From Pontibacterium sinense (GTDB lineage Bacteria > Pseudomonadota > Gammaproteobacteria > Pseudomonadales > Balneatricaceae), in the NCBI RefSeq assembly GCF_015209595.1, contig NZ_JADEYS010000009.1, positions 62,001 through 126,000 of the forward strand: DNA of 64,000 nucleotides, in the 5' to 3' direction. The notes beneath the pieces were generated by a model. That model saw nothing but the letters and a program-made list of their open reading frames with translations, ran no database searches and was not told where the DNA came from. The position numbers were made by a program, and so were the translations under genes. Positions 21,710 to 35,497 of this stretch are shown one piece after another; position 1 is the stretch's first letter, and each line of letters opens with the position of its first letter.

Positions 21710-23038
21710 TTATCTATATAAAAGCTCAGGCAGGAACAATGAGATAGGCGCGATCAGCGTTACCAGAATCAAGCGCACAATATCAGCGCACCAGAACGGG
21801 GTTACACCCTTAAAGATGGTGCTTGCCTTAACATCCCGCAATACGGCACTAAGAACGAAGACGTTCATACCCACCGGCGGCGTGATCAGACTAATCTCTG
21901 TAACAACCACAACTACAATACCGAACCACACCAGATCAAAACCTAAGCTATGAACCAATGGGAAGAAGATCGGCACCGTCAACAGCATCATCGACAGACT
22001 CTCAAACACCATACCCAGTACGATGTAGATACCAAGTATCGCGAAGATAACCATCATCGGCGATACATCCAAGCCCTGAACGAACGCCAGCAAATCAGAT
22101 GGCAGACCCGCACGGTTGATGAAGTTGGAGAAGATCAGTGCACCGATCAATACACCAAATAGCATCGCAGAGGTACGACCCGTATCGGTCAGAATGTCGA
22201 ACAGGCTGGCAAACGTCAGCGTTTTACGGGACAACGCGATCAGGAATGCACCGCCGGCACCGATACCTGCGGCTTCTGTCGGCGTGAAGATACCCATATA
22301 GATACCACCCATCACGATGGTAAAGAGGATCAATACACCCCAAACACCGTTCAGTGCTTCCATACGCTCAGGCCAGGTCAGCTTTTCACCGCATGGACCC
22401 GCTTCAGGTTTACGCCAAACTACATACCGCACAGCACACAGGTATAAGAGAATACCCATAAAGCCTGGAATAAAGCCGGCAGCAAACAACTCACGAATAC
22501 TTGTTTCAGTCAGCAGACCATAAATCACCAGAATAACGCTTGGCGGGATCAGAATACCCAGCGTACCACCCGCTGCAATTGACGCGGTTGCCAGAGAATC
22601 TGCATAACCGTATTTACGCATCGGAGGCATGGCTACCTTAGCCATCGTCGCAGAGGTTGCCAGACTTGAACCACAGATCGCAGAGAAACCGCCACACGCA
22701 ACAACCGTTGCCATGGACAGACCGCCCTTCCGGTGGCCTAAGAAGGCATTGGAAGCACGGTATAACTCATGGGACAAACCGGACTTGGTGACCAGGTTAC
22801 CCATAAGAATAAATAGAGGAATAACGGACAGACTGTATTCCTGCGCGGTATCAACCACACGCTTAGCAGCCATGGACAGTGAACCTGTCCAGCGGAAGTC
22901 GCCCATGTTGTCAAAGGTCAAACCCTGCATGTACGCAAAGCCGAAGAAGCCCACGATCCCCATGGAAAACGCAATCGGGATACGCACGATGACGATCAGG
23001 ACCAACAGAATAGCAAAGCCGATCAGTGCTACTGTCAT
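21710..23038 (-). CDS. TRAP transporter large permease (DctM family)
   Basis: A 442-residue membrane protein with about 12 helices. Visible family features are ACGGFSAICGSSLATSATMA and ITPPVGMNVFVLSAVL. It is the ion-coupled translocating subunit of a tripartite TRAP uptake system. It is the third gene of the cassette P-Q-M and starts 37 bases after the small permease gene. Confidence 0.94.
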   Translation of the reverse strand: MTVALIGFAILLVLIVIVRIPIAFSMGIVGFFGFAYMQGLTFDNMGDFRWTGSLSMAAKRVVDTAQEYSLSVIPLFILMGNLVTKSGLSHELYRASNAFLGHRKGGLSMATVVACGGFSAICGSSLATSATMAKVAMPPMRKYGYADSLATASIAAGGTLGILIPPSVILVIYGLLTETSIRELFAAGFIPGFMGILLYLCAVRYVVWRKPEAGPCGEKLTWPERMEALNGVWGVLILFTIVMGGIYMGIFTPTEAAGIGAGGAFLIALSRKTLTFASLFDILTDTGRTSAMLFGVLIGALIFSNFINRAGLPSDLLAFVQGLDVSPMMVIFAILGIYIVLGMVFESLSMMLLTVPIFFPLVHSLGFDLVWFGIVVVVVTEISLITPPVGMNVFVLSAVLRDVKASTIFKGVTPFWCADIVRLILVTLIAPISLFLPELLYR

Positions 23039-23075
23039 GCTGAAATTACCTGTCTAACTTTATAATAATCGTTAT

Positions 23076-23591
23076 TTAGTCACGAGAGAGGAACAGGAGG
23101 CGATATACGCCATAGGTGATCATTGCACCTGCTGTTACCCAGCTCATCACAGCAATGTACTGAATAATGAGACCCACCGGCAGTTCGAGGTATTCAGTTA
23201 CCTCATCGCGACGCATTGAACGCGCTGCCAGAAAATAGATCCTCTCACCCAGAAAATAGAGAGATGAAGACATCAGAAATGCGGACAGTAAGCCCAGCAC
23301 TTTAAGAAGCACGCTACCCAGCATGCGATCAAGAATATCAACGACTACGTGGCCACCCCGCCAGGTAATAACTGGCATTTCAGCAAAGACCAAAATGGCG
23401 ATGCCGATCTCTGTCAGCTCTGTGGCGCCATCAACGGAGTTGTCAAAAAAGTAGCGGCCGAATACGTCTGCACACGTCAGAACCATCAGCAGAAACAGCG
23501 TAACAGCAGCTACCAACTCCAGAGCAAAGGCCAGCCATTTGACTGGCCCTTTCTCTTCGTAGTGCGCTGTGACCCAGGCACTAAATGACAT
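23076..23591 (-). CDS. TRAP transporter small permease (DctQ family)
   Basis: A 171-residue protein with four predicted membrane helices. The DctQ-type segments FGRYFFDNSVDGATELTEIG and ITWRGGHVVVDIL are visible. It pairs with the large permease and is encoded 11 bases after the binding-protein gene. Confidence 0.92.
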   Translation of the reverse strand: MSFSAWVTAHYEEKGPVKWLAFALELVAAVTLFLLMVLTCADVFGRYFFDNSVDGATELTEIGIAILVFAEMPVITWRGGHVVVDILDRMLGSVLLKVLGLLSAFLMSSSLYFLGERIYFLAARSMRRDEVTEYLELPVGLIIQYIAVMSWVTAGAMITYGVYRLLFLSRD

Positions 23592-23602
23592 ACGGTGACT
23601 CC

Positions 23603-24628
23603 TTATTTACCGTAAGAGCGAGCGATGGAACGCAGCTCAGTCAGAGCAGCTTTCGCATCTACGCCACGATCAGTAACGTGAGAGACCCAAGCGTCGTCCA
23701 TACCTTTAGCCAGACTCTTGAATTCTTTCGCCATTGCACCATCAGCAGCCACTTCGTTCAGGTTCACGCCTGCTTCTTTAGCAGCCACGTAACCTTCAGC
23801 ATCACCTGCATCCCATGCGCGACCTGCCAATGCAGACAGTTTCTCACCAGAAACGCTCATTACAGCCTTACGATCTTTCTCGCTCAAGCTATCCATGAAG
23901 TCAGGGCTCAGGAACATAGAGAAGCTACCCAAGTACATACCACCTGGCAGTGCAACTACGTTACGAGCAACTTCTTTCAGACGCAGTGTTTTCTGCTCAC
24001 CCATAGGGATGAAAACACCATCGATAACGCCCTGCTGCATCATTTCGTATACTTTCGGAGCCGGTGCACCAACAGCGGTCACGCCCAGACGCTTACCGAT
24101 TTCACCCTGAACACCACCGCCGATACGGATTTTCTTGCCTTTAAGGTCAGACAGGGAATCGATTGGCTTAGCCATGTGAATCTGGCCAGGACCGTGAGTG
24201 AACAGCGCCGCCAGTACCAGACCGTCGTGCTCGTTCGCTTTGGTGAAGTATTTTTCGTTTACGCGCCAGTGAGCAATAGAAGCGGCTTCAGCGCTCACGC
24301 CCAGACCTGGCTGCTCAACAACCTGAGTCAGCTTGAAGCGACCCGGCACGTAACCGTGGTAGCTGAAGCTTGCGTCTACAACACCATCTTCAACCAGTTC
24401 GAACATGGTTTTTGGGTGACCCATGCCATATTCGATTTTAATTTTTACTCGACCTTCGGTCGCTTCCTCAACCCACTTGCCCCAAGTAGGCCAAACAACA
24501 GCATTTTGAGGATGAGTCGGCGGCAACCAGCTTGCTACACGCATGACAGTTTCTGCCATTACGGAAGTGGACAAAGTCAGACCCAAACCTACAGCTGCAG
24601 CTGTTTTCAGGAAATTTCTTCTTATCAT
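23603..24628 (-). CDS. TRAP transporter substrate-binding protein (DctP family)
   Basis: A 341-residue periplasmic binding protein with a signal peptide (an RR-containing N-terminus, hydrophobic core, then VMAET). The ligand-anchoring region of the family, here KGKKIRIGGGVQGEIGKRLG, carries the expected arginine. The substrate cannot be told from sequence. Its place between an aromatic hydroxylase block and a PaaA-like oxygenase makes an aromatic or other organic acid a reasonable guess. It leads its operon, behind a promoter region with several palindromes. Confidence 0.92.
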   Translation of the reverse strand: MIRRNFLKTAAAVGLGLTLSTSVMAETVMRVASWLPPTHPQNAVVWPTWGKWVEEATEGRVKIKIEYGMGHPKTMFELVEDGVVDASFSYHGYVPGRFKLTQVVEQPGLGVSAEAASIAHWRVNEKYFTKANEHDGLVLAALFTHGPGQIHMAKPIDSLSDLKGKKIRIGGGVQGEIGKRLGVTAVGAPAPKVYEMMQQGVIDGVFIPMGEQKTLRLKEVARNVVALPGGMYLGSFSMFLSPDFMDSLSEKDRKAVMSVSGEKLSALAGRAWDAGDAEGYVAAKEAGVNLNEVAADGAMAKEFKSLAKGMDDAWVSHVTDRGVDAKAALTELRSIARSYGK

Positions 24629-25005: not shown

Positions 25006-25401
25006 CTACCAATAAACATCCTTTAGTACATCGGCAAGCTTTTCACGCGCTTCACCAAAGTGATTCACGCTGTCTTCATATGCATCCCTTGCCAATGTAT
25101 AGCGCTCCATCTGATCGGTATTAATACCTTTATAGAGATCAGCCTGAACAGCACGACACTCTTCAAAGAATCGATCTGCAATCAGACGGCGGCGCATATA
25201 AATTTTTGCAGCTTCCTGCTGACTTGGTCGCATGTCGGCGAAATCTGATACGTCAGGAAACTCCGCCGTAGCGAAGTCCCCTTTCAGCAGCGCCCACATC
25301 CCAGACCAGTCTTCCTCAGCACCATCAAATGCTTTGTAGCCGAATTTGGCCAACACACTGACATTGCTTTCAACTAATTTATCTGGAGATGGGATAATCA
25401 T
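25006..25401 (-). CDS. Unrecognised 131-residue partner of the PaaA-like subunit
   Basis: A soluble, mostly helical protein rich in charged residues and aromatics (YMRRRLIADRFFEEC, FGEAREKLADVLKDVYW). It starts 16 bases after the stop of the PaaA-like gene on the same strand, so the two form an operon. It does not look like PaaB, PaaD or any other named Paa subunit, and it has no cysteine pairs or metal motif. A role as a small structural or effector subunit of the oxygenase is inference from position and size only. Confidence 0.75.
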   Translation of the reverse strand: MIIPSPDKLVESNVSVLAKFGYKAFDGAEEDWSGMWALLKGDFATAEFPDVSDFADMRPSQQEAAKIYMRRRLIADRFFEECRAVQADLYKGINTDQMERYTLARDAYEDSVNHFGEAREKLADVLKDVYW

Positions 25402-25417
25402 GATTAAACCCTCTTAA

Positions 25418-26200
25418 TCACTCTACGCCGTAACCTACGCGCATGTCGTAGTTTGGCTCAACACCTTGCGGCAGTACGAAACCGATATCACCCAGACGGT
25501 CTTCCAACAGCTCCAGATATTCAGCCTGCAGCTCTTCAGGTGTTTTAACCTTCAGACCATATTCGTGGTAGATATCAAACATCTCGGACTTCTTGCCACC
25601 TTCAGAAGGACGGCCGTAGAAACCCAGACCAACCTGCATGAACTTAGCAATACGCTCCTGCATGAATTCACGGGTTTTCTCACCACCAAATTCGATACAA
25701 CGCTTGGATGCCCAAACGCCAAATGCCAGATGACCGTGCTCTTCTTTATGGATGCGCACGTTTACACGCGCCCATGGCAGGTAAGAACACTCACGGTACT
25801 GACCCAGGAATGCTACAGCCGCAGGAGTTACTACGGTTGAGAACAGGGCAACATCTTCCCAGCACTCGAACCAGGTAGACCAGTTTTCTTTACGGAAACC
25901 GTTGATCACGTTGACCTTGCTTGAATCTGGATTCTCCGGATTTGATGCCAGCTCGTGCAGACGTGAATCAACATCAACGTCCAGATCACGCAGCAGGTTC
26001 CAGATGTAGTAGCCGTGACCCATCTCTTCCATGACTTTTTTGGAGAGACGGTACGCTTCTTCCGGGCGTGGCGCGAAGCGATGGTTTTCAGCTACACGCT
26101 GAGCACCGGCGTATTCAGAATCAGCCTGAAACGTCATCAGGTTGATCAGACACTCTTTATAGTGCTCTGGCAGTTTATCGCCCTTATCGTAAGTCTTCAT
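25418..26200 (-). CDS. PaaA-like di-iron oxygenase subunit
   Basis: A 260-residue ferritin-like protein of the phenylacetate-CoA oxygenase family, shorter than typical PaaA (about 310). The ligand set of the di-iron site is visible: Glu29 (ADSEYAG), Glu59 and His62 (EEMGHGYY, matching DEAGHG of PaaA), a candidate Glu115, and Glu154 with His157 (KEEHGHLAFG, matching KEESFHQRQG). ECSYLPWARVNVRI matches the region before the last motif in PaaA. It should be the catalytic subunit. It is divergent from a PaaX-type regulator gene. The acyl-CoA substrate is unknown. Confidence 0.85.
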   Translation of the reverse strand: MKTYDKGDKLPEHYKECLINLMTFQADSEYAGAQRVAENHRFAPRPEEAYRLSKKVMEEMGHGYYIWNLLRDLDVDVDSRLHELASNPENPDSSKVNVINGFRKENWSTWFECWEDVALFSTVVTPAAVAFLGQYRECSYLPWARVNVRIHKEEHGHLAFGVWASKRCIEFGGEKTREFMQERIAKFMQVGLGFYGRPSEGGKKSEMFDIYHEYGLKVKTPEELQAEYLELLEDRLGDIGFVLPQGVEPNYDMRVGYGVE

Positions 26201-26324
26201 AAACGGTTATCTCCGATTGTTCTGAGCAAAACGCACATTAACTAACTAACGCAAACCTAACAGCGCCGCTCTCCCAATCCCGCTCACCCAAAGTGACACA
26301 AAATTCGACGCCGAAATCAAAATT

Positions 26325-26359
26325 AGTGTATCATTCACTGCATGTCAACCATTTGTTGA
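26325..26359. promoter_or_regulatory. Two dyads between the PaaA-like and PaaX-like genes
   Basis: An imperfect dyad (AGTG...CACT at 26325-26339) and a second (TCAAC-N5-GTTGA at 26345-26359) lie with centres 20 bases apart, on one face of the helix. They sit in the divergent promoter region, 125-160 bases from the PaaA-like start. They are candidate sites for the PaaX-type repressor. The match to the published E. coli PaaX box is poor. Confidence 0.4.
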
Positions 26360-26497
26360 GGCCACCATTGTCCAGCACGACACCACCTATTCAGTTGAAG
26401 GTGGCCGCGGGACACACTAGAATTCCCTGTAAATTAAGGGCTTGCGGGATATTCATCCTGCCTGCAGTCAACAACAAATGATTTGCAGATTTTTTTG

Positions 26498-27418
26498 ATG
26501 ACAAAACTTCGCTGTATCGAAGAACTCGTAGAAGAGTTCAAAAACCAGCGCCCGATCCGCGGCGGCTCGCTAATCATTACTATTTATGGTGATGCGATCT
26601 CCCCGCGAGGCGGTACTGTCTGGCTTGGCAGCCTGATTAAACTGCTTGAGCCACTCGGTCTGAATCAGCGACTGGTGCGTACATCTATCTTCCGATTGAC
26701 CAAGGAAGGATGGCTGACCTCAACGCAGGTTGGTCGACGTAGTTACTACAGCCTGACGGATACCGGGCGTCGTCGATTTGAGAGCGCATTCCGTCGTATC
26801 TACGCCGAACTCTATCCAGAATGGGATGGAAAGTGGGATATGGTCATTACGACACAATTAGATGTCGAGCTGAGAAAGGTTGTCAAAAAAGAACTGGAAT
26901 GGCTCGGTTTTGGTAACATTGCACCCAGTGTCATGGCGCATCCCATGGCAGAAATGGCAGAAGTAAACAGCACCCTGCAAGAGTTATGCGTCAATGGTGA
27001 AGTGATCCATATGGAGTCACAACTCATTGGCACACAAACCTCCGCACCGCTCAAAGAACTGGTGCACGAGTGCTGGAACCTGCAGCAGCTGGCTGAAGAC
27101 TACCAAACCTTTCTGGAGCGCTTTCGCCCTATCCTTCGCGCACTGGAAAGCGCGGAAGAACTGGACCCGGAACAATGCTTCCAGCTGCGGACACTGATGA
27201 TCCATCACTACCGGCGCGTCCTGTTACGTGACCCGCAGCTACCAGAAAAATTGCTCCCTGCCGAATGGGCCGGTACCTCAGCCCGCATTCTGGCACGCAA
27301 CATATACCGCATGGTGCAGGTAAAAGCGGAAGAATATCTGTCAGTAACGCAGGAAACAGCCGATGGCCCACTGCCAGAAGCAGCACCGCGTTTCTATAAA
27401 CGATTTGGTGGCCTTTAA
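26498..27418 (+). CDS. paaX: PaaX-family transcription repressor
   Basis: A 306-residue PaaX-type regulator. The N-terminal winged helix (SLIITIYGDAISPRGGTVW, RTSIFRLTKEGWLTSTQVGR) is near residues 20-90, and the middle and C-terminal domains match the family (FESAFRRIYAELYPEWDGKW; MIHHYRRVLLRDPQLPEKLLP near 240). PaaX proteins repress phenylacetate genes and are released by phenylacetyl-CoA. It is divergent from the PaaA-like gene. The ATG at 26498 follows a TTG that could also serve, and no strong ribosome site is visible. Confidence 0.92.
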   Translation: MTKLRCIEELVEEFKNQRPIRGGSLIITIYGDAISPRGGTVWLGSLIKLLEPLGLNQRLVRTSIFRLTKEGWLTSTQVGRRSYYSLTDTGRRRFESAFRRIYAELYPEWDGKWDMVITTQLDVELRKVVKKELEWLGFGNIAPSVMAHPMAEMAEVNSTLQELCVNGEVIHMESQLIGTQTSAPLKELVHECWNLQQLAEDYQTFLERFRPILRALESAEELDPEQCFQLRTLMIHHYRRVLLRDPQLPEKLLPAEWAGTSARILARNIYRMVQVKAEEYLSVTQETADGPLPEAAPRFYKRFGGL

Positions 27419-27554
27419 TGGCCCCATCGGTCGCTCCCCGACCCTCTGACAATACGCACATTTAGCTAACTAGCCGCAATACTCCGGCTAAAACCGATGA
27501 CATCTTTCGCACAGATGAATACACGGTAGCCGGAACCCAAACATAATAAGAGAC

Positions 27555-27573
27555 CCGGATCTCACAGATCCGG
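27555..27573. other. Hairpin in front of the NADPH reductase gene
   Basis: CCGGATCT-CAC-AGATCCGG forms an eight-base stem 27 bases before the ATG, in the gap after paaX. There is no T-run. It may be a regulatory 5' hairpin or an operator. Confidence 0.45.
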
Positions 27574-27599
27574 TCACGATTTACCCCGGAGACAACGAT

Positions 27600-28913
27600 A
27601 TGATCAACATCGCTATCATCGGTAGCGGCCCGTCAGGCTGCTATATTGCGGATATGCTTTCTAAAAAGGTGGCCGATGCTCAGGTAGACATTTTTGACCG
27701 CCTCCCAACGCCTTTTGGACTCGTGCGTGCAGGTGTTGCCCCTGACCATCAAGGCACCAAAAACATCGTCCGTCAGTTTGAGCGTACCTTTTCCCGTGAC
27801 AATGTACGCTTTGTCGGCAACGTAAATATTGGCGACGATATCACCTATCAGGAATTGAAAGACCATTACGACGTTATCGCAGTCACTATCGGCGCCTTAC
27901 AGGATCGCGATCTGGGCATTGATGGCGAAGACCTGAACGGTGTTTACGGCTCAGGTGCGTTCGTGGCCTGGTATAACGGCCACCCAGATCACGCCGATCT
28001 GAACCCTAAGCTCGACAGCTCAGGGATCGCAATCATTGGCAACGGCAACGTTGCACTGGACATTTCCCGCATTCTTGCAAAAACAGATGCAGAGATGGGA
28101 AGCTCCGATATCACAGCCGATTCCGTGGCAGCGATCGCTGAATCGCCGGTACAGGATATTTATCTGATCGGTCGCCGAGGCCCAGTTGAAGCCAGCTTCA
28201 CGAATGCGGAACTCAGTGAATTTGCGGAGCTGGATCGCTGTGTAGCATTGGTTGATTCCGCACAACTGCCTGCTGCACTGCCCGAAGACTTCGACCCGAA
28301 AGCAGCGAAAGCTATCGAGAAAAACTTGGAAACTTTGCGTGGTTATGCCGAAAACGCAACGGATTCCAAACCGGTTCGCTTGCATATTATGTTCTGCGCG
28401 TCCCCGACGGCTATCCTGGGTGAACACGGCACAGTAACCGGCTTACGTCTGGAGAAAAATCAAATTACAGACGGCCGTGCAACAGGCACTGGGGAAACCT
28501 TTGATCTGAACGTACAAACAGTCATCTCTGCCATTGGTTACCGCAGCCAATCGATTGAAGGCATGCCATTCGATGAAGAACGCGGCATCGTCAGCAATGA
28601 AGATGGACGCGTAGAAGACGGCGTCTACACCTCTGGCTGGTGCAAACGTGGTCCTCAAGGTGTTATTCCTGCCAATCGGGCAGATTCTATGGGTGTTGCT
28701 AAACAGATTATTGCCGATTTGGAAGAAAACATGCCCGCTGGAGACAAAGCAGGCTTTAATAAAATTGCTGCATTGTTGGATGAACGCAACGTACGCACGG
28801 TCGCTTTCTCTGACTGGCAGACGATCAATGAAGCAGAAGTCAGCCGTGCACAAGGCGACAAACCTCGCGAGAAGTTCAATCGCATTCCTGAAATGCTGGC
28901 GCTTCTCGACTAA
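27600..28913 (+). CDS. Adrenodoxin-reductase-like ferredoxin/flavodoxin-NADP reductase
   Basis: A 437-residue flavoprotein of the adrenodoxin reductase type. The FAD motif IAIIGSGPSGCYIADML is at the N-terminus, followed by PTPFGLVRAGVAPDH near residue 41. The NADP-binding GNGNVALDISRIL is near 147, IGRRGPVEASFT near 190, and SGWCKRGPQGVIPANRADS near 343. It passes electrons from NADPH to a small carrier. Lying between a PaaX regulator and Paa-like genes, and with a flavodoxin gene 5 kb away, it could feed the PaaA-like oxygenase in place of PaaE. Confidence 0.9.
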   Translation: MINIAIIGSGPSGCYIADMLSKKVADAQVDIFDRLPTPFGLVRAGVAPDHQGTKNIVRQFERTFSRDNVRFVGNVNIGDDITYQELKDHYDVIAVTIGALQDRDLGIDGEDLNGVYGSGAFVAWYNGHPDHADLNPKLDSSGIAIIGNGNVALDISRILAKTDAEMGSSDITADSVAAIAESPVQDIYLIGRRGPVEASFTNAELSEFAELDRCVALVDSAQLPAALPEDFDPKAAKAIEKNLETLRGYAENATDSKPVRLHIMFCASPTAILGEHGTVTGLRLEKNQITDGRATGTGETFDLNVQTVISAIGYRSQSIEGMPFDEERGIVSNEDGRVEDGVYTSGWCKRGPQGVIPANRADSMGVAKQIIADLEENMPAGDKAGFNKIAALLDERNVRTVAFSDWQTINEAEVSRAQGDKPREKFNRIPEMLALLD

Positions 28914-28941
28914 GTTCAGCAACCGCTAAAGAAACAACATC

Positions 28942-28972
28942 AAGCCGCCAGGCAATGCCTGTGCGGCTTTTT
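28942..28972 (+). terminator. Terminator after the NADPH reductase gene
   Basis: AAGCCGC...GCGGCTTTTT with an inner AGGCAATGCCT hairpin lies 28 bases after the stop. It also rules out the earlier in-frame start (28955) of the next gene. Confidence 0.9.
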
Positions 28973-28999
28973 AGCTATCTGTATCAGAGTAAGATCATC

Positions 29000-29626
29000 A
29001 TGCCATTACCCACCCCTGCAAACCGAGTTCAACAACACACCCGACGCGTTATCTGTGAAGGTTATAAGCGTGAAGATGGCTTGTGGGACATCGAAGGCCA
29101 TCTACTTGATACTAAGAACTTTGCCATTGAGCTCAAGGATCGTGACGATGGCATACTGGCCGCAGGCGAACCTGTCCACAACATGTCAATCAGGCTCACC
29201 ATCGATCTGGACCTGAATATACTCGACGTGGCCGCCAGTATGGACGCAACCCCTTTCCGGGGCTGCCCAAGTATTACCAGTGCATATAAACAACTTATAG
29301 GCACTCAGATAAAACCTGGCTTCACCAAACTCACGCGCGATATGTTCAGCGGTGTACATGGCTGCACCCACCTGCTTGAGCTACTTGGTCCTGTTGCAAC
29401 AACAGCATTCCAGGCAACCCACCATGAACGAGAAGCGCTCGAAGGGTGGTCTGATGGAGATCAAAAGCCACCGATGCTCGATACGTGTCACACCATGGAT
29501 TCTAAAGGTGCCGTTGTACAAACCTATTGGCCACACTTTTACCAGCCAGAAGAAGAGAACCAACAGCGCAATACGGACGCCCACATCATTGCCACAGAAA
29601 ACATAGAGGCAATAACGGGCGGATAA
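29000..29626 (+). CDS. DUF2889 protein
   Basis: A 208-residue soluble protein of the DUF2889 family. Recognisable segments are ICEGYKREDGLWDIEGHL near residue 17 and FSGVHGCTHLLELLGPVAT near 115, the latter with a conserved His/Cys/His cluster that could bind metal. Its biochemical role is not established. The ATG at 29000 is chosen because the upstream alternative falls inside a terminator. Its setting among Paa-like genes hints at aromatic catabolism. Confidence 0.85.
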   Translation: MPLPTPANRVQQHTRRVICEGYKREDGLWDIEGHLLDTKNFAIELKDRDDGILAAGEPVHNMSIRLTIDLDLNILDVAASMDATPFRGCPSITSAYKQLIGTQIKPGFTKLTRDMFSGVHGCTHLLELLGPVATTAFQATHHEREALEGWSDGDQKPPMLDTCHTMDSKGAVVQTYWPHFYQPEEENQQRNTDAHIIATENIEAITGG

Positions 29627-29672
29627 GCGCTCGGAGATGGATTAAACAGAGATGGATCTAGTACAAGAGAGG

Positions 29673-29704
29673 TGAAGCGGCCCGACATCATCGGTACCGC
29701 TTCA
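29673..29704. terminator. Hairpin between convergent genes
   Basis: TGAAGCGG and CCGCTTCA pair around a 16-base loop between the DUF2889 and NfeD-type stops. There is no T-run, so it is a weak terminator call. Confidence 0.4.
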
Positions 29705-29723
29705 TGCAAGATATGGGTTTAAC

Positions 29724-30167
29724 CTAAGCGATCGAACGAATTTTCAGCGTCATCCCTTCACTGCCAAAAATTTCTACTTTTGCTCCGGCCTCTAACTCAT
29801 CATCGGCCTCAGCCTTCCAGAGCGTGTCTCCCACACGGATACGCCCCTGACCACCTACCAGTGCTTCCTCCAACACCAGACGGCGACCAATCAGCTGAGC
29901 GGCACGATCATTGAGCAGCGGCTCGGCTGATTTGTCATTGAAACCGCGAAACACCTTCCAGTACACCAACGTAAAGACAACCGACAGCAAGGAAAAGACC
30001 AGCAGCTGATGCTGCCACTCAGGCAGAAGCTCCAGCGCAACAATCCCGGACATACCAAATGCAGCCACGGCAATGCCCAGCAGAAAACCGCTGGTACCGA
30101 GAACTTCCAAAATGAGTAGGACAACGGCCAATGTCAGCCAGTGCCACGTGTTAATCACATCAAACAA
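29724..30167 (-). CDS. NfeD-family membrane protein
   Basis: A 147-residue protein with three N-terminal membrane helices and a C-terminal OB-fold-like NfeD domain (LIGRRLVLEEALVGGQGRIRVGDTLW). It sits 12 bases after the SPFH gene. NfeD/SPFH pairs are conserved and act in membrane organisation or protein quality control. The pair looks like a housekeeping insertion within the aromatic region. Confidence 0.9.
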   Translation of the reverse strand: MFDVINTWHWLTLAVVLLILEVLGTSGFLLGIAVAAFGMSGIVALELLPEWQHQLLVFSLLSVVFTLVYWKVFRGFNDKSAEPLLNDRAAQLIGRRLVLEEALVGGQGRIRVGDTLWKAEADDELEAGAKVEIFGSEGMTLKIRSIA

Positions 30168-30179
30168 CGGTACGCTCCA

Positions 30180-31094
30180 CTAGTTCTTCACAGACTTGAG
30201 TATCTCACCGATACCCGCCACAGACCCGATGACGCTACTTGCCTCCAATGGCATTAGTACAACTTTCTCATTGTCAGCAGAAGCGATCTGCCCCAAGGCT
30301 TCGACATACTTCTGCGCGACAAAGTAGTTTAACGCTTGCGGATTACCTTCGCTAATCGCTTTGGATACCATGTCGGTCGCGCGGGCTTCGGCCTCTGCCT
30401 CACGCTCACGGGCTTCAGCCACACGGAACGCCGCTTCTTTCTCACCTTCTGCGATCAGAATTTGCGCCTGACGCTGACCTTCAGCCACCTTGATCGCAGC
30501 CTCACGCTCACCTTCTGCCTGCAAAATAGCCGCACGCTTTTCACGTTCCGCTTTCATCTGGTTAGCCATCGCATCAACCAGATCCTGCGGTGGAGAGATA
30601 TCACGGATCTCAACTCGGGTCACTTTAACGCCCCACGGGTCCGTCGCCTCATCAACCTTTGCCAATAGCTGACTATTGATAGTGTCACGATTGGAGAGCA
30701 TGGCATCCAGCTCCAGAGAACCCAGAACTGCACGAATGTTGGTCATAACCAGGTTCTGCATCGCACGGTAGAGGTCGTTTACCTCATAGCTCGCCTTTGC
30801 CGCATCAAGAATCTGAAAGAAGCACACTGCATCTGTCGTCACCTGCGCATTGTCGGCGCTGATCACTTCCTGTGGTGGTACATCCAGTACCTGCTCCATC
30901 ATATTCTCTTTGCTGCCGACACGATCGATCAACGGAATGATCAGGTGAAGCCCAGGTGCTATCGTTCGGGTATAGCGCCCAAACCGCTCAACCGTCCAGT
31001 TGTACCCTTGCGGCACCATCTTTACACCCGAGAAAATCAACGCGAGCGCGAAGACAACAATAACTCCAACTGAAATTTCAAAGCCAAACATCAC
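30180..31094 (-). CDS. SPFH/Band 7 protein (QmcA-like)
   Basis: A 304-residue stomatin-like protein with one N-terminal membrane helix. The Band 7 domain includes MVPQGYNWTVERFGRYTRTI near residue 27, DISPPQDLVDAMANQMKAER near 165 and a coiled coil rich in Ala, Glu and Arg (about 175-240). It forms large membrane-associated oligomers. It is in an operon with the NfeD gene. Confidence 0.93.
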   Translation of the reverse strand: MMFGFEISVGVIVVFALALIFSGVKMVPQGYNWTVERFGRYTRTIAPGLHLIIPLIDRVGSKENMMEQVLDVPPQEVISADNAQVTTDAVCFFQILDAAKASYEVNDLYRAMQNLVMTNIRAVLGSLELDAMLSNRDTINSQLLAKVDEATDPWGVKVTRVEIRDISPPQDLVDAMANQMKAEREKRAAILQAEGEREAAIKVAEGQRQAQILIAEGEKEAAFRVAEAREREAEAEARATDMVSKAISEGNPQALNYFVAQKYVEALGQIASADNEKVVLMPLEASSVIGSVAGIGEILKSVKN

Positions 31095-31236
31095 AACATC
31101 CTTATATCGGTTTTTGACGGAACGGAAGCAGTCAATTGAAATGATTACACTTTTTGTAGCTACGCAATCAAATCAAGCGCTACTCCCTAGCTCTGTATAG
31201 CAGTATATGGAGGCAATTTCATGGCAAAGGTGTAAC

Positions 31237-31863
31237 TTAATCGGCTTTTTGAGACTGCTGTTCTTTCAACTTATAGAGCGGAATGACTTCGTCAACATTG
31301 ATCTCAAGGCGCTTACGATCCGCCTCAACCTCAGTCAGAGCATCCACCTCTTCCATGGTATTCAGGCTGCGTACGGCCAGATCCTGATACTGACGCGTAC
31401 CTGCGCTTTTCCAGGAAATTTCACCTTCTGACAGCTCACGAATCACTTTCGCCGGCGAACCTGCCACCAGCGTGCGGTCAGGCACTTCGAACTTCGCTTT
31501 TACAAATCCCATCGCAGCTACGATAGACGACTCACCCACCACAGCACCGTCCATGATCACTGCATTCATTCCCACCAACGCATTCTTTTTAATAGTGCAG
31601 CCATGCAGCACCGCACCGTGCCCAATATGGCCATCTTCCTCTACAACCGTATCGCTATTAGGGAAGCCGTGCATGACACAGGTATCCTGAATATTGGCAC
31701 CCTCTTTCAGCACCAGACGACCAAAATCACCCCGCAAACAAGCAGCAGGTCCTACATAACAACGTGGACCAATAATGACATCACCAATTAATACAGCGGT
31801 CGGATGCACATAAGCTGTCGGATCAATAACCGGCGTAATGCCATCGATAGCGTAAACTTTCAT
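31237..31863 (-). CDS. paaY: PaaY-like hexapeptide-repeat thioesterase
   Basis: A 208-residue left-handed beta-helix protein of the gamma-carbonic-anhydrase type, strongly like PaaY. The opening [20 protein letters not shown] is followed by hexapeptide repeats with metal-binding histidines ([24 protein letters not shown]). PaaY hydrolyses dead-end CoA esters formed when the phenylacetate ring-opening step fails. Its presence supports ring epoxidation on CoA esters in this region. It lies after the PaaN-type gene on the same strand, behind a terminator. Confidence 0.92.
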
Positions 31864-31880
31864 TCCATATCTCCAAACAC

Positions 31881-31902
31881 AAAAAAGAGGGCTCTGCCCT
31901 CT
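31881..31902 (-). terminator. Terminator after the PaaN-type gene
   Basis: GAGGGC-TCT-GCCCTC with an A-run on the plus strand gives a T-tail on the minus strand. It is located between the paaN-type stop and the paaY start. Confidence 0.85.
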
Positions 31903-32014
31903 TATAACATGACCCGAAAGTCGGGAATACCCTTATAACAATTCGATGACAGAGCAATATGACCGAAGACGGTCGTGCAGCAATAAATACCGCCCTATCA
32001 TGATCAATGACTCA

Positions 32015-33685
32015 TTATTTCGGGTGACGACGGCTCTGCACCACGCGGAAGCGGTTTGCAACGTAGGCCAGATCCGACAGACACGCATTTGCCGCTGGGT
32101 TGCAGCCGGTTGCGTGGAAGTCAGAGAACGCAGCACTCTGGTTTACGAAGACACCGCCGGTCAGGTTGCAGGACAACGCAACGCCCGCATCCAGAGAAGC
32201 TTCTTCGATCTGATCTAGTACATCGTCGCTGGAAGAGTAGCAACCCATGGTGATCGCACCGTGGTTCTTCACAGCTTTGTTCGCCAGCGCAATACTCTGC
32301 TCAGTGCTGTCAGTCTTGATCACGAAGGAGATCGGACCAAACAGCTCTTCCATGTAGGTCTCTTCTTTGTCTGCATCGATGGTCATGATCAGCGGGCTGT
32401 GTACACGCGCATCTTTGAACCATGGGTTTTCCATCGGCTCGGAATCGCGAACGACAGTACCCAGACCTTTGCTGTCTTCAATACGCTGCGCGGTTACAGG
32501 CGCCTGAATCGCACCCAGCACCATTGCAGCACGCTCAGGGTCGGACAGGAACTTAGTCACGCCGGTAGAGATCGCTTCAGCCACTTCATCGAAGGACTTG
32601 TGACCCAGATCGGTCTCGATACCGCCCGCGGGTACAAAGATATCCTGCGGCGTGGTGCACATCTGGCCGGAGTACAGGCTCAGAGTGAAAGACAGGTTAC
32701 GCACCATGCCTTTAAAATCATCCGTGGAATCGATGACGATGGTGTTCACACCCGCTTTCTCGGTATACACCTGCGCCTGCGGACAGTTGTTTTCCAGCCA
32801 GTCACCAAACCAGGTGTTGCCGGTAAAGTCGATCAGACGAACTTCATCACGCTGTGCCAGCTCCATGGTGCATGGCTTGGTTGCGTCTTCGTCGATAACC
32901 ATAGAGACAAGGTGTGCCGGCAGACCGTTCTCTACCAGAACCTCCTGCGCAATCTTGATGCTGATTGCAGCAGGCAAGATGCCTGCAGGGTGTGGCTTAA
33001 CCACAACCGGGTTGCCGGTTACCAGAGAAGCAAACAGACCCGGGTAGGTGTTCCACGTTGGGAACGTGGAGCAACCGATCACCAGACCGACACCACGGCC
33101 GACCACGGTAAATTTCTTATCCAGTACCAGCGGATCGTGCTTACCCTGCGGTTTAGTCCAGGTTGCAACACCCGGTGCAGAGGTCATCGCTTCATAGGCG
33201 TAAGCCACCGCTTCCAGACCACGGTCCTGTGCGTGTGGGCCACCGGCCTGGAACGCCATCATGAAACCCTGACCGGAGGTATGCATGACGGCGTAACCGA
33301 TCTCAAAACTGCGCTTGTTAATACGCTCCAGAATTTCCAGACAGATGCCAGCACGGGCTTCAACACCCACATCACGCCATGCTTTCTGCGCGTCTTTCAT
33401 CGCTGGCAGCAGAACATCCAGATCAACCAGCGGGTACTGAACGTCCAGATCAAAACCGTACGGGGATTTTTCGCTGCCCGCAGTGCCAGTGATACCCGGC
33501 ATATCCAGCTCAAACGCCTGACCGATATACGCTTTGAAGGCGTTCTCGCCGTCTTTATTCGCAGTTTCGCCGTATTTACGCGGACTTGGATTTTCCGGGT
33601 AAGGGCTGAAGTAATCACGTGAGTGAATGGCGTTCAATGCACCCTTCAGGGTGTCCTGGTGTTTCTCAAACAGGTTCTGGCTCAT
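32015..33685 (-). CDS. paaN: PaaN-type ring-opening aldehyde dehydrogenase
   Basis: A 556-residue aldehyde dehydrogenase of the PaaN/PacL type. Catalytic cysteine region SGQMCTTPQDIFVP is near residue 325, the NAD-fold segment IDFTGNTWFGDWL near 268, and EELFGPISFVI near 450. It lacks the C-terminal MaoC-like hydratase domain of E. coli PaaZ, so ring hydrolysis must come from another protein. It would oxidise the ring-opened semialdehyde. The start at 33685 follows GGGA; an upstream in-frame ATG lacks this support. Confidence 0.9.
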   Translation of the reverse strand: MSQNLFEKHQDTLKGALNAIHSRDYFSPYPENPSPRKYGETANKDGENAFKAYIGQAFELDMPGITGTAGSEKSPYGFDLDVQYPLVDLDVLLPAMKDAQKAWRDVGVEARAGICLEILERINKRSFEIGYAVMHTSGQGFMMAFQAGGPHAQDRGLEAVAYAYEAMTSAPGVATWTKPQGKHDPLVLDKKFTVVGRGVGLVIGCSTFPTWNTYPGLFASLVTGNPVVVKPHPAGILPAAISIKIAQEVLVENGLPAHLVSMVIDEDATKPCTMELAQRDEVRLIDFTGNTWFGDWLENNCPQAQVYTEKAGVNTIVIDSTDDFKGMVRNLSFTLSLYSGQMCTTPQDIFVPAGGIETDLGHKSFDEVAEAISTGVTKFLSDPERAAMVLGAIQAPVTAQRIEDSKGLGTVVRDSEPMENPWFKDARVHSPLIMTIDADKEETYMEELFGPISFVIKTDSTEQSIALANKAVKNHGAITMGCYSSSDDVLDQIEEASLDAGVALSCNLTGGVFVNQSAAFSDFHATGCNPAANACLSDLAYVANRFRVVQSRRHPK

Positions 33686-33729
33686 AATAAATCCCACTCT
33701 GTACCGGTTCTGCTGCATCACAAAACCGA

Positions 33730-33739
33730 CAACCGGTTG
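33730..33739. promoter_or_regulatory. Short palindrome upstream of the PaaN-type gene
   Basis: CAACCGGTTG is a perfect 10-base palindrome 45 bases before the start. A second ACCGGTT occurs at about 33702, so the two could be paired half-sites. The evidence is weak. Confidence 0.3.
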
Positions 33740-33867
33740 ATAATAGCTACTTGTTATTGTTCTGATGACTTAACGCGCTTTCGCATTATTGCGGAATACG
33801 ATTTATAAGCAATGCATGTTTCGACACGCGTTTCGTTTGATACACCATTTATGGGGTATCAGGTACA

Positions 33868-33899
33868 GAAAAGGCCACACCTAATGGGTGTAGCCTTTT
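33868..33899 (-). terminator. Terminator after the flavodoxin gene
   Basis: AAAAGGC...GCCTTTT with an inner ACACC/GGGTGT stem lies about 60 bases after the flavodoxin stop on the minus strand. Confidence 0.8.
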
Positions 33900-33958
33900 G
33901 ATATTCGTTTTCGACGCATAGTCCATCTTAAGAATGCGGCGGCGTTTACAACTTTTTA

Positions 33959-34405
33959 CTACAGCTGTTCTGCCCAGTCACGTACCCAATCACGCGCATC
34001 TTCATCAGGCAAAGGCTGAGTACAAGCATCAACTTCAAAACGCTCGCCTACGCGCACCGCACCTAAGCTGGCTAACAACGCATCCACATCTTTGCCAGCC
34101 TGACAAAATGTCTGGTGGTAGGTTTGATCACCCAGCGCAACGACGCCGTATCGAATGTGAGACAGATCCGGTTTCTGTTCCTTCAATGCATCACACAGCG
34201 GAATGATGTTATCTGGTAGCTCACCATCTCCATGTGTTGAACAGCTGATGATCAGCACATCGCGGCTGGAAAAATCCAGCTCGTCATAGTCTGGCTCTTC
34301 GTGCAGCGCGACCTCATGTGCTTCTTCCAGCACCTCTTGCAGTGCGTCAGCCACCATTTGTGCATTGCCTGATTCAGTACCTACCAGAATCGCGATATCT
34401 GTCAT
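33959..34405 (-). CDS. Flavodoxin (MioC-like)
   Basis: A 148-residue FMN-binding flavodoxin-like protein. The phosphate-binding loop GTESGNAQMVADAL is near residues 9-22, SCSTHGDGELPDN near 54, and YGVVALGDQTYHQTFCQAGK near 85 around the flavin ring. It is divergent from the PaaC-like gene, with a shared promoter region. It may carry electrons from the adrenodoxin-reductase-like protein to the oxygenase, though sequence alone does not show partners. Confidence 0.9.
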   Translation of the reverse strand: MTDIAILVGTESGNAQMVADALQEVLEEAHEVALHEEPDYDELDFSSRDVLIISCSTHGDGELPDNIIPLCDALKEQKPDLSHIRYGVVALGDQTYHQTFCQAGKDVDALLASLGAVRVGERFEVDACTQPLPDEDARDWVRDWAEQL

Positions 34406-34726
34406 AAACCCTCGCCTACCCTTTTATTCTGCTTAATCTATGGGCTTCTATTTAATGCCAATAATCCAAACGATACACCAAACTTTATGATACGAAAAGT
34501 TTATTATCAATTAATATTCTTGTATCTCTTTTGGTTTTTGGGTTAACCTTGCGTTATGACAGGTTATTGCTTTGACTGGCCGATTGTCTGAACACCGGAT
34601 CTGTGCCAAAAGCACACATACACCCCCACTGTGGTAACAGTCAGAGCAATCATGGTCCAAAAAAATAATGACATAGGCGCGCAACCGCATACGCGCTACA
34701 CCCTCAAAAAGAGTGAGGCTTCTCTT
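34406..34726. other. Divergent promoter region, flavodoxin and PaaC-like genes
   Basis: A 321-base gap holding both start regions and the inverted repeat at 34480-34502. A longer reading of the PaaC-like frame from a GTG at 34631 is possible but has no ribosome site. Confidence 0.5.
34480..34502. promoter_or_regulatory. Inverted repeat in the flavodoxin/PaaC-like promoter region
   Basis: AAACTTT-N9-AAAGTTT is a perfect seven-base dyad. Its spacer holds ATGATAC, whose reverse complement GTATCAT also occurs in the dyad at the paaX promoter (26328-26334). Seven bases can recur by chance, so a shared operator is only a suggestion. Confidence 0.4.
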
Positions 34727-35497
34727 ATGGCAATGGATGATAAAAAACTAATCGAACGCATCGCTAACGGTGAAAAGATTCAGGCGGGTGAAGAGATCTC
34801 TTCCGGATACCGTGCTGAGCTGATGCGCCTGATGGTTGTCTTCGTGGATTCTGAACTGGCTGGTGCTGCAGGTTTCGCAGAACAGATCAATGAAGGCCCG
34901 GGTTTGCGTGAGCGGCAGGTTGCTGCGCAGATCGTTGCAGATAAGTTTGATCATGCTGAAAAAGTACTGACATTGCTGAAAGAGTTTGGTGTCGATAACC
35001 GACTTTATGTTGCCTCCCATGCCTGGGAAGCCCGCCTGAGCCGCTACCTGGATCTGGGTAATCGCCGTATTGGCGGTGACAAACGCCTGAATGTATTCCA
35101 CTACCCGCTACAGGGCTGGACAGATGCACTGGTCATGAACGCCTTGATGGCTGCTGCCTCAGGCATCCAGCTGAAAGAACTTCGCAACGCCTCCTATGCC
35201 CCACTGGCCGACGCGATGCGCGCAGTAGCTGAAGGTGAATCCCGTCATGCTGAACTGGGTGAGCGAGGCCTGCAGGATCTGATCGATCGTAATGGCACCG
35301 ATGCGGCACAGGTCGCGGTTGAGTTCTGGTATCCGAAAGTAGCAGCAACCTTTGGTCGTTCCGATTCTCAGCACAATGACCGCTTCCGTGCCTATGGCCT
35401 GATCACCAAAACCAATGATCAGCGCCTGAATGAATGGGAAGGTTTGGTAAATGACGTCCTGACCCGCCTGGGGCTGACCGTTCCTGACACCGAGTAA
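34727..35497 (+). CDS. PaaC-like oxygenase subunit
   Basis: A 256-residue ferritin-like protein of the phenylacetate-CoA oxygenase family. Glu43 (DSELAG) and Glu171/His174 (EGESRHAELG) are kept. The first ExxH motif reads KFDH (residues 73-76), so the first ligand is Lys. A lysine in the lost metal site is also known in the structural subunit PaaC of E. coli, so this is probably the non-catalytic partner of the PaaA-like protein. The start follows GAGTGAGG at eight bases. It stands alone, 8.5 kb from its presumed partner, and ends at a terminator. Confidence 0.85.
   Translation: MAMDDKKLIERIANGEKIQAGEEISSGYRAELMRLMVVFVDSELAGAAGFAEQINEGPGLRERQVAAQIVADKFDHAEKVLTLLKEFGVDNRLYVASHAWEARLSRYLDLGNRRIGGDKRLNVFHYPLQGWTDALVMNALMAAASGIQLKELRNASYAPLADAMRAVAEGESRHAELGERGLQDLIDRNGTDAAQVAVEFWYPKVAATFGRSDSQHNDRFRAYGLITKTNDQRLNEWEGLVNDVLTRLGLTVPDTE

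What the first reader, a model, noticed from the sequence alone, without database searches (positions are those of the whole stretch)
25006..35497. Unusual Paa-like ring-oxygenase region with split subunits and a possible FNR/flavodoxin electron supply
A PaaA-like protein keeps the di-iron ligands (Glu29, Glu59/His62, Glu154/His157). A PaaC-like protein has Lys in place of the first ExxH glutamate. The two are 8.5 kb apart in separate transcripts. PaaB, PaaD and the reductase PaaE are absent from the window. Instead there are an adrenodoxin-reductase-like NADPH flavoprotein and a flavodoxin, plus PaaX, PaaY and a PaaN-type dehydrogenase. Known: PaaABCE with PaaD is the normal phenylacetyl-CoA epoxidase. 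Inference: this is a variant epoxidase for a related acyl-CoA, with a different electron chain.
Basis: partly seen in the sequence, partly recalled or inferred. Interest (0 to 1): 0.85.

Follow-up and report, generated by a model that had tools for sequence, protein, structure and literature searches.

The report
Alternative phenylacetyl-CoA ring epoxidase system
These genes look like a second way for bacteria to attack the ring of phenylacetate, using a different iron enzyme and different electron-carrier proteins from the textbook enzyme.

Summary
Window 25418-26200(-) ("fam0") is a PaaA-like di-iron protein; 34727-35497(+) ("Clike") is a PF05138 paralogue with Lys at a ligand position, not a PaaC orthologue. 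An adrenodoxin-reductase-like FNR, a MioC-like flavodoxin, and PaaX, PaaY and PaaN equivalogs lie around them. The genome also has a canonical paaJK-ABCDE on another contig, but the tree puts fam0 outside the PaaA, PaaC and BoxB clades.

In the family (116 species), fam0 and Clike occur in the same 7 genomes; the only four genomes with ligase PaaK over cut-off and no PaaB are all among those 7. Of 16 examined fam0 genomes with true PaaK, 11 lack PaaB, PaaE (over cut-off) and canonical PaaA/PaaC, yet carry PaaG and PaaI beside PaaK.

Best reading: fam0 is the catalytic subunit of an alternative phenylacetyl-CoA epoxidase. In Proteobacteria it has a new helical partner ("fam3") and is probably fed by FNR and flavodoxin; eleven more distant loci, mostly Melainabacteria, pair it with a BoxA-like ferredoxin. 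Clike's role is open: it also follows paaE in canonical alphaproteobacterial operons, and fam0 exists without it. All is sequence inference; no activity is shown. New variant of a known kind.

The parts
25418..26200 (-). fam0: PaaA-like di-iron oxygenase, proposed catalytic subunit of the alternative phenylacetyl-CoA epoxidase
   Evidence: PF05138 78.5 bits; six ligand positions invariant in 46 of 46 rows from 42 loci; own clade, 100/100; AF2 model pLDDT 91, best PDB matches PaaA-length chains of PaaAC entries
25006..25401 (-). fam3: 131-aa helical partner, next gene behind fam0; no known family
   Evidence: No Pfam or NCBIfam hit at E 1e-3; near fam0 in 31 of 31 proteobacterial-type loci, directly behind it in 30; AF2 model pLDDT 81, long helical hairpin, 0 of 331 PDB matches at E <= 1e-3
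26483..27418 (+). PaaX-type repressor, divergent from fam0
   Evidence: TIGR02277 329.8 bits, cut-off 264.55; in 26 of 31 proteobacterial-type loci
27600..28913 (+). FNR: NADPH-adrenodoxin/ferredoxin reductase-like flavoprotein, proposed reductase
   Evidence: 1cjc E 1.9e-88, FprA 6.2e-82; in 25 of 31 proteobacterial-type loci
28955..29626 (+). DUF2889 protein behind FNR; role unknown; among the 42 loci mapped, seen only in L007-L013
   Evidence: PF11136 142.6 bits
31237..31863 (-). PaaY
   Evidence: TIGR02287 331.3 bits, cut-off 319.6
32015..33721 (-). PaaN_2 aldehyde dehydrogenase (ring-opening branch); 99% identical to the copy on contig C12
   Evidence: TIGR02288 872.8 bits, cut-off 578.75
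33959..34405 (-). Fld: short flavodoxin, MioC-like, proposed electron carrier; 93% identical to the copy on C12
   Evidence: PF00258 101.8 bits; divergent from Clike in 22 of 22 Clike rows of fam0 genomes, 20 distinct places
34727..35497 (+). Clike: PF05138 paralogue with Lys at the first ExxH Glu, probably non-catalytic; 96% identical second copy on contig C12 at the head of paaFGHIJK
26323..26334 (-). candidate shared operator-like 12-mer in the fam0/PaaX intergenic region; a 2-mismatch copy lies at 34470-34481 between Fld and Clike (weak evidence)
21710..24628 (-). TRAP transporter (DctP 23603-24628, DctQ 23076-23591, DctM 21710-23038) downstream of fam0-fam3; a branched-chain-type ABC transporter takes the place in many alphaproteobacterial loci and L013
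   Evidence: PF03480, PF04290, PF06808; (ABC names by inspection)

Best explanation
fam0 is the catalytic di-iron subunit of an alternative phenylacetyl-CoA epoxidase that can replace PaaABCE. Proposed course: PaaK makes phenylacetyl-CoA; fam0, with the helical subunit fam3, activates O2 at a carboxylate-bridged di-iron site and makes the 1,2-epoxide; PaaG isomerises it to oxepin-CoA; PaaN and the lower-pathway enzymes finish the route. In Proteobacteria electrons most likely run NADPH to FNR to flavodoxin to fam0. The Melainabacteria-type loci instead have a BoxA-like two-cluster ferredoxin gene beside fam0. Clike is probably a non-catalytic accessory of the pathway. Shown: gene content, conserved ligand positions, clade structure, genome co-occurrence. 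Inferred: substrate, reaction, electron route, protein contacts.
For: (1) The positions of the PaaA ligands (Glu42, Glu72, His75, Asp126, Glu155, His158; PMC4498308, passages) and of its Lys68 are kept in 46 of 46 fam0 rows, 42 loci. (2) AF2 model pLDDT 91; the first 8 Foldseek hits are PaaA-length chains (295-304 aa) of PaaAC/PaaABC entries (TMq 0.75-0.78), then 4mud (rank 9) and PaaC (rank 11); BoxB from rank 33. (3) Of 25 genomes tested, 16 have PaaK over cut-off; 11 of these 16 have no PaaB, no PaaE over cut-off and no canonical PaaA/PaaC (none below E 1e-80), and all 11 have fam0. In their mapped stretches PaaK, PaaI and PaaG are seen in 11 of 11, PaaJ in 10, PaaH in 9, PaaF in 5; PaaN_2 is over cut-off in 9 of 11 genomes and in 0 of 14 controls. 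(4) Family of 116 species: PaaK over cut-off 66, PaaB 69, fam0 7, Clike the same 7; the only PaaK+/PaaB- genomes (4) are all fam0+. (5) Synteny: in Terasakiella fam0-fam3, PaaK-J-I-H-G(-F)-Clike and Fld-PaaN-PaaY share one contig, fam0 about 14 kb from Clike. (6) PaaG, PaaF and PaaH beside the second Clike copy of the own genome are over their equivalog cut-offs. (7) In the 8 handle genomes of Melainabacteria type (one is L040's 'Proteobacteria' MAG) fam0, or fam0 and fam21, are the only PF05138 genes found; PaaN_2 is over cut-off in 5 of 8; a PaaK-like/hydratase/PaaF-like/PaaG-like run was seen in 3 of 3 PaaK regions fetched.
Against: No activity or phenotype data. The own genome and 4 of 24 relatives also hold canonical PaaABCE, so there fam0 could serve another substrate. 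PaaA Glu49, a partner of the lysine bridge, is Val in 46 of 46 fam0 rows. PaaE-like proteins below cut-off exist in most of the genomes (23 of 25 have some match; best 276.9 bits in Marinobacterium arenosum against 420.8), so a PaaE-like donor is not excluded. The Melainabacteria-type ligases are under the PaaK cut-off (468-612 bits against 646.3) and the one PaaG-like protein scanned is too (308.7 against 345.15). One fam0 genome (Phenylobacterium, G016) has no PaaK match and no PaaN_2. Two of the 11 (G007, G011) lack PaaN_2. FNR is missing from the mapped stretch in 6 of 31 proteobacterial-type loci, PaaX in 5 of 31. The 4 PaaK+/PaaB- family genomes are one genus. The 24 handle genomes were chosen because they carry fam0, and several are draft MAGs.
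Confidence: 0.72

Rival explanations
1. fam0 oxygenates a different substrate that feeds the same lower pathway or the homogentisate branch, for example a hydroxyphenylacetyl-CoA or another aryl-acetyl-CoA.
For: The own genome has both systems and two PaaK over cut-off. A PRK08132-type FAD monooxygenase, fumarylacetoacetase (TIGR01266 552 bits) and a GST-type gene lie near the window cluster, and FAD-monooxygenase homologues sit near PaaK in several alphaproteobacterial loci.
Against: The 11 genomes with true PaaK and no PaaABCE would then have no known phenylacetyl-CoA oxygenase although PaaG, the epoxide isomerase, is beside PaaK in 11 of 11. BoxB, present in at least two of them (L083 and L084), is reported not to act on phenylacetyl-CoA (PMC4498308, passages).
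Confidence: 0.18
2. fam0 and Clike are the two subunits of one heterodimeric epoxidase, PaaAC-like, encoded apart; Clike is essential.
For: fam0 and Clike occur in the same 7 of 116 family genomes. In 5 of 11 Melainabacteria-type loci the Clike-clade gene fam21 is the gene directly behind fam0. A basic residue stands at the ligand position in 34 of 34 rows.
Against: Clike follows paaE in canonical paaABCDE operons, with no fam0 in the mapped stretch, in 8 of 8 such loci. Both Azospirillum handle genomes, Phenylobacterium (G016) and 5 of 8 Melainabacteria-type handle genomes have fam0 without a recognisable Clike.
Confidence: 0.35
3. Clike is an accessory or protective protein of phenylacetate pathways in general, not of fam0 in particular.
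For: paaABCDE-Clike operons; Clike at the head of the paa lower-pathway genes in fam0 genomes.
Against: In the family of 116, no genome without fam0 has a Clike at 69% identity or more; the other matches are at 23-30%.
Confidence: 0.45
4. FNR and flavodoxin are bystanders, and fam0 takes electrons from an unlinked ferredoxin or a PaaE-like reductase.
For: Eleven of 42 loci carry a BoxA-like ferredoxin and no Fld, FNR or fam3 in the mapped stretch. Azospirillum loci have a Fer2/FAD/NAD reductase in place of FNR. Sub-cut-off PaaE-like proteins are common.
Against: Fld is divergent from Clike in 22 of 22 Clike rows of fam0 genomes (20 places) and is not found in the 8 canonical-operon Clike stretches; FNR is in 25 of 31 proteobacterial-type loci.
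Confidence: 0.3

Closest known systems
PaaABCE, 1,2-phenylacetyl-CoA epoxidase (E. coli type, with PaaD)
   Same: PF05138 fold, di-iron ligand positions, Lys68 equivalent, company of PaaK, PaaG, PaaX, PaaY and lower-pathway genes
   Different: fam0 is about 24% identical to PaaA and forms its own clade; no PaaB, PaaC orthologue, PaaD or PaaE beside it in the window; new helical partner fam3; different electron carriers; Glu49 of the lysine bridge is Val
BoxA/BoxB, benzoyl-CoA 2,3-epoxidase
   Same: PF05138 oxygenase with a separate reductase; the one ferredoxin scanned from the Melainabacteria-type loci (L042) matches the N-terminal part of BoxA (TIGR03224 E 4.3e-15, positions 4-82 of 411)
   Different: BoxB is about 480 aa and a separate clade; no BoxB equivalog hit for fam0
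SSO1313 of Sulfolobus (PDB 4mud), PaaA/PaaC-like protein
   Same: Short PF05138-type protein; best PDB match of Clike (E 9.8e-13) and rank 9 for the fam0 model
   Different: Archaeal; function not looked up (entry title only)
Adrenodoxin reductase / FprA with flavodoxin-type donors
   Same: FNR of the cluster belongs to this reductase type; the flavodoxin is MioC-like
   Different: PaaE is a fused FNR/2Fe-2S protein (recalled); I found no description of such a pair serving a PF05138 oxygenase in the searches made

Membership tests
PF05138 PaaA_PaaC family | Profile match over the gathering score | tested here: met
   fam0 78.5 and Clike 83.9 bits, cut-off 28.5
PaaA equivalog (TIGR02156) | Score over curated cut-off 280 bits | tested here: not met
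   fam0 70.9, Clike 73.0 bits
PaaA (catalytic subunit) | Six di-iron ligand residues | tested here: met
   46 of 46 fam0 rows, 42 loci
PaaA (catalytic subunit) | Lysine bridge Lys68 with Glu49 | tested here: inconclusive
   Lys kept 46 of 46, Glu49 position Val 46 of 46; an invariant Glu two residues on
PaaA clade | Falls inside the canonical PaaA clade | tested here: not met
   PaaA and fam0 each one side of a branch, 100/100
PaaC equivalog (TIGR02158) | Score over curated cut-off 133.35 bits | tested here: not met
   Clike 26.3 bits; PaaC clade separate, 100/100
PaaABCE complex | PaaB and PaaE in the genome and beside the oxygenase | tested here: not met
   PaaB in 5 of 25 fam0 genomes, PaaE over cut-off in the same 5 of 25; no PaaB or PaaD hit in the 42 fam0 loci mapped, PaaE only as 24-42% hits in three Azospirillum loci, L034-L036; none in the window
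BoxB | TIGR03225 match and BoxB clade | tested here: not met
   No hit for fam0; Clike 19.6 bits against 499.1; separate clade, its 4 rows confirmed as BoxB
Phenylacetate pathway (genomic context) | PaaX, PaaY, PaaN equivalogs in the window; PaaG, PaaF, PaaH beside the second Clike copy; PaaK in the genome | tested here: met
Phenylacetyl-CoA epoxidase activity | NADPH- and O2-dependent epoxidation of phenylacetyl-CoA | not testable with these tools
   needs enzyme assay

The most novel reading that the evidence does not exclude
A second, independent phenylacetate-degradation enzyme system exists in Oceanospirillaceae, Rhodospirillales-type Alphaproteobacteria and non-photosynthetic Cyanobacteria (Melainabacteria), in which a 260-aa di-iron protein without PaaB, PaaC or PaaE epoxidises phenylacetyl-CoA and takes electrons from interchangeable carriers: FNR/flavodoxin in most Proteobacteria, a BoxA-like ferredoxin in Melainabacteria-type loci, perhaps a 2Fe-2S reductase in Azospirillum.
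Probability: 0.55. Interest if true: 0.85.

Novelty: new variant of a known kind. Interest (0 to 1): 0.76.

Why it matters
PaaA and PaaC are used as genomic markers of phenylacetate catabolism; a 2026 survey reports them kept in all 825 proteomes with the ligase (PMC13186573, passages), after a filter for co-location with PaaABCDE and pathway genes. Eleven genomes here have the ligase and lower-pathway genes without PaaABCE. A survey by Pfam architecture could count fam0 and Clike as PaaA and PaaC, or drop the genomes (my inference). If confirmed, the enzyme would be a compact di-iron arene epoxidase with simple, soluble electron partners, useful for studying how this fold binds redox partners, and it would extend aerobic phenylacetate use to Melainabacteria.

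Tried and rejected
Rejected: (a) 'PaaC with a Lys is a degenerate PaaC': Clike is nearer to PaaA and 4mud than to PaaC, and the Lys or Arg is present in 34 of 34 rows. (b) Clike as proof of the fam0 system: it occurs in paaABCDE-Clike operons without fam0 in the mapped stretch. (c) fam3 as a PaaB in disguise: the model is a helical hairpin with no PDB match at E <= 1e-3. (d) A palindrome for PaaX recalled from memory was not found in any of 8 intergenic stretches.

Weak: the 12-mer shared by promoters. I used 6 of 30 fam0/PaaX and 9 of 23 Clike/Fld intergenic stretches (the gammaproteobacterial ones); it matched 6 of 6 and 7 of 9 with up to 2 mismatches, against at most 3-4 of 9 in five letter-shuffles, but the rows are orthologous and the best word was picked after the fact. 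It occurs 6 times in the 64-kb window, two of them in these promoters.

Led nowhere: paper searches for a described alternative epoxidase. One search returned 8 papers with phenylacetyl-CoA and flavodoxin, judged from the listing only; two papers with PF05138, neither on this by title; none. So 'not described' means not found in these searches of open-licence papers.

Phylum sample: 1 of 398 genomes, the own one, has a fam0 orthologue; 69 others matched at about 22-34% identity, taken as canonical PaaA or Clike by score, only some looked at. fam0 is rare.

Rows left out. Tree: 73 rows chosen by hand (15 of 46 fam0, 12 of 22 Clike, 4 of 5 fam21, 7 of 8 canonical-operon Clike, 15 PaaA, 15 PaaC, 4 BoxB, 1 other); two further weak BoxB-like stretches fetched (L085, L100) and the remote L088 and L099 were not used. 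L106's Clike found no start codon in my script, and L033's Clike is cut by the contig end; both are missing from the row counts. The program warned that long branches meet between PaaA and fam0, so their relative position is not used. Row counts of 46, 34 and 22 hold a few repeats of one place (L062, L068, L069, L070, L055 overlap other loci).

Full report
What is in the window. I use working names: fam0 for the PaaA-like protein (25418-26200, minus), fam3 for the 131-aa ORF right behind it (25006-25401, minus), Clike for the PaaC-like protein (34727-35497, plus), FNR for 27600-28913, Fld for the flavodoxin 33959-34405. PaaX, PaaY and PaaN_2 are over their NCBIfam cut-offs. The FNR is closest to adrenodoxin reductase and FprA, the flavodoxin to a short flavodoxin (2m6r) and MioC. 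PaaB, PaaC, PaaD and PaaE of the own genome find nothing in the window.

The rest of the genome. The own genome (4.64 Mb, 52 contigs, 99.9% complete) has five PF05138 genes. Two are canonical paaA and paaC on contig C19, in the order paaJ, paaK, paaA, paaB, paaC, paaD, paaE (PaaB, PaaK and PaaE by profile, paaA and paaC by PF05138 score, paaJ and paaD by inspection). The third is a 96% identical copy of Clike on contig C12, with a 93% identical flavodoxin and a 99% identical PaaN beside it and paaF, G, H, I, J, K behind it; PaaG, PaaF and PaaH there are over their equivalog cut-offs. The fourth and fifth are fam0 and Clike of the window. So the genome carries a canonical set and the fam0 set, and the block Clike/Fld/PaaN twice.

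Relatives of fam0. A pattern scan of 84,980 named genomes gave 75 matching stretches, of which 42 were confirmed as loci. I sort them by what lies near fam0 (tblastn maps). In 31 loci (L007-L036, L038; marine Oceanospirillaceae-type gammas, many Rhodospirillales-type alphas, other MAGs) fam3 is found in 31 of 31 (directly behind fam0 on its strand in 30; in L038 about 1 kb off on the other strand), PaaX in 26 of 31 and FNR in 25 of 31. In the other 11 (L037, L039-L048; ten labelled Melainabacteria, Obscuribacterales or Cyanobacteria, one a 'Proteobacteria' MAG) a ferredoxin of about 80 aa follows fam0, or fam0 and a Clike relative (fam21), in 11 of 11, and fam3, FNR, PaaX and Fld are not found in the stretch. 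The one such ferredoxin scanned (L042) has 4Fe-4S domains and matches the N-terminal part of BoxA. fam21 is present in 5 of these 11. fam0 is about 61-66% identical between the two groups in the pairs compared.

Does it replace PaaABCE? I searched 24 of the genomes behind these loci plus the own one. PF05138 (own): canonical PaaA and PaaC (E below 1e-80) in 5 of 25. PaaB: the same 5 of 25. PaaE over cut-off: the same 5 of 25, though 23 of 25 have some weaker match, the best 276.9 bits in Marinobacterium arenosum against a cut-off of 420.8. PaaK over cut-off: 16 of 25. Hence 11 genomes have true PaaK, fam0, and no PaaA, B, C or E of the canonical kind; 9 of those 11 also have Clike, the two Azospirillum do not. 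In their mapped stretches PaaK, PaaI and PaaG are seen in 11 of 11, PaaJ in 10, PaaH in 9, PaaF in 5. PaaN_2 is over cut-off in 19 of 25 genomes, in 9 of these 11, and in none of 14 controls. In Terasakiella the fam0 module and the PaaK-to-Clike and Fld-PaaN-PaaY modules are neighbours on one contig. These genomes were picked because they have fam0, so I also searched the whole family of the window's genome without that filter: 116 species, PaaK over cut-off in 66, PaaB in 69, fam0 (90% identity or more) in 7, Clike (69% or more) in exactly the same 7; PaaK over cut-off without PaaB occurs in four genomes, all among the 7 (counted, where chance of 4 of 4 is 2e-5 if genomes were independent, which they are not: all four are one genus). 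The other three of the 7 have PaaB as well.

Melainabacteria-type genomes. Of 8 handle genomes of this type (G017-G024, L040's MAG included), fam0 (5 genomes) or fam0 plus fam21 (3 genomes) is the only PF05138 found. Five of 8 have PaaN_2 over cut-off; in the 5 PaaN regions mapped no other paa query matched beside PaaN (ABC-type hits apart). In the three whose PaaK-like region I fetched, PaaK-like, hydratase, PaaF-like and PaaG-like genes form a run. The PaaK-like scores, 468-612 bits, are under the 646.3 cut-off, and the one PaaG-like protein scanned is under its cut-off (308.7 against 345.15). This is support, but weaker than for the Proteobacteria.

The enzyme. All 46 fam0 rows (42 loci) keep the residues that align with the PaaA ligands Glu42, Glu72, His75, Asp126, Glu155 and His158, and Lys68; the position of Glu49, a partner of the PaaA lysine bridge, is Val in all 46, with an invariant Glu two residues on (PaaA numbering from passages of PMC4498308). 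The profile of fam0 finds PaaA structures at E 6e-13. The AF2 model (pLDDT 91) matches PaaA-length chains of PaaAC entries first (TM 0.75-0.78 by query), then 4mud and PaaC; BoxB is far lower by E-value. In Clike the first ExxH Glu is Lys or Arg in 34 of 34 rows while the Asp126, Glu155 and His158 equivalents are kept in 34 of 34; the Glu42 and His75 equivalents vary (25 of 34 Glu, 27 of 34 His). So it is probably not an iron oxygenase; this is inference. The tree puts PaaA, PaaC, BoxB (4 of 4 rows over the BoxB cut-off) and fam0 each on one side of a branch with 100/100 support; the quick tree joins Clike and fam21 with 95 SH-aLRT.

Against a simple 'split PaaAC' picture. Clike also sits directly behind paaE in canonical operons of alphaproteobacteria: of 10 stretches fetched, 8 (L101-L107, L109) show paaABCDE then Clike, with no fam0 and no Fld in the mapped stretch; L108 has paaABCDE without Clike, and L110 only a remote Clike match (24%) and no canonical paa set (the stretches were partly picked for a second PF05138 hit). 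Azospirillum loci have fam0 and fam3 but no Clike and no FNR; there a Fer2/FAD/NAD-domain reductase and a further protein with only a sub-threshold AurF match (19.0 bits, cut-off 29.6) lie behind PaaX in the place of FNR (only L069 read in full). I therefore keep fam0 as the core and leave the role of Clike open.

Electron supply. Fld stands divergently beside Clike in 22 of 22 Clike rows of fam0 genomes (20 distinct places), and is not found in the 8 canonical-operon Clike stretches. With FNR in 25 of 31 loci this makes NADPH to FNR to Fld to fam0 the most economical route in Proteobacteria, but no contact or electron transfer is shown. In Melainabacteria-type loci the BoxA-like ferredoxin is the evident candidate.

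Literature. The 2026 survey PMC13186573 (passages read) says PaaA and PaaC are kept in all 825 proteomes with the ligase, after keeping only ligases co-located with PaaABCDE and pathway genes, and mentions rare 'other configurations' without the epoxidase. PMC9007349 (passages) describes a new oxepin-CoA hydrolase; the passages seen name no new epoxidase. I found no paper on this system in nine searches, judged from listings; most subscription papers are not in that library.

Verdict. Observation confirmed; interpretation partly supported. A rare but widely spread variant of phenylacetyl-CoA epoxidase is the best reading (0.72), the substrate being the main doubt in genomes, like this one, that also have PaaABCE.

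Noticed in passing
L101-L107, L109: Clike is the gene behind paaE in canonical paaABCDE operons of several alphaproteobacteria, a sixth gene of unknown role with a Lys at a di-iron ligand position (7 of 7 rows read).
   Followed up: partly
L069:3788-6257: In an Azospirillum fam0 locus, a protein with only a sub-threshold AurF match and a Fer2/FAD/NAD reductase lie behind PaaX in the place of FNR; PaaE-type hits to such a reductase recur in L034-L036 and L070.
   Followed up: partly
window:28955-29626: A DUF2889 protein follows FNR; among the 42 loci mapped it is seen only in L007-L013. Role unknown.
   Followed up: no
window:14174-18323: A GST-type gene (maleylacetoacetate-isomerase-like, name recalled), fumarylacetoacetase (TIGR01266) and a PRK08132-type FAD monooxygenase form a homogentisate-like module near the fam0 cluster; homologues of the monooxygenase stand near PaaK in several alphas.
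   Followed up: partly
L049:10831-14252 and window:32015-35497: The block Clike/flavodoxin/PaaN is duplicated in the genome (96%, 93% and 99% protein identity), PaaN being far more alike than its neighbours; Amphritea (L060, L061) and Marinobacterium arenosum (L054, L055, Clike/Fld only) also have two copies.
   Followed up: yes
L021, L025, L027, L030, L032 and Azospirillum loci: A hemerythrin-domain gene (PF01814 in L030) is found in the fam0 region of many alphaproteobacterial loci.
   Followed up: no
window:29724-31094: An NfeD and a Band_7/SPFH gene lie between DUF2889 and PaaY in this genome and in the near-identical L007, not between these genes in L008-L011.
   Followed up: partly
L088, L089/L110: Further remote PF05138 proteins (25% and 24% to Clike) in genomes G011 and G066, L110 with PaaE-type hits near by; not placed.
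   Followed up: no
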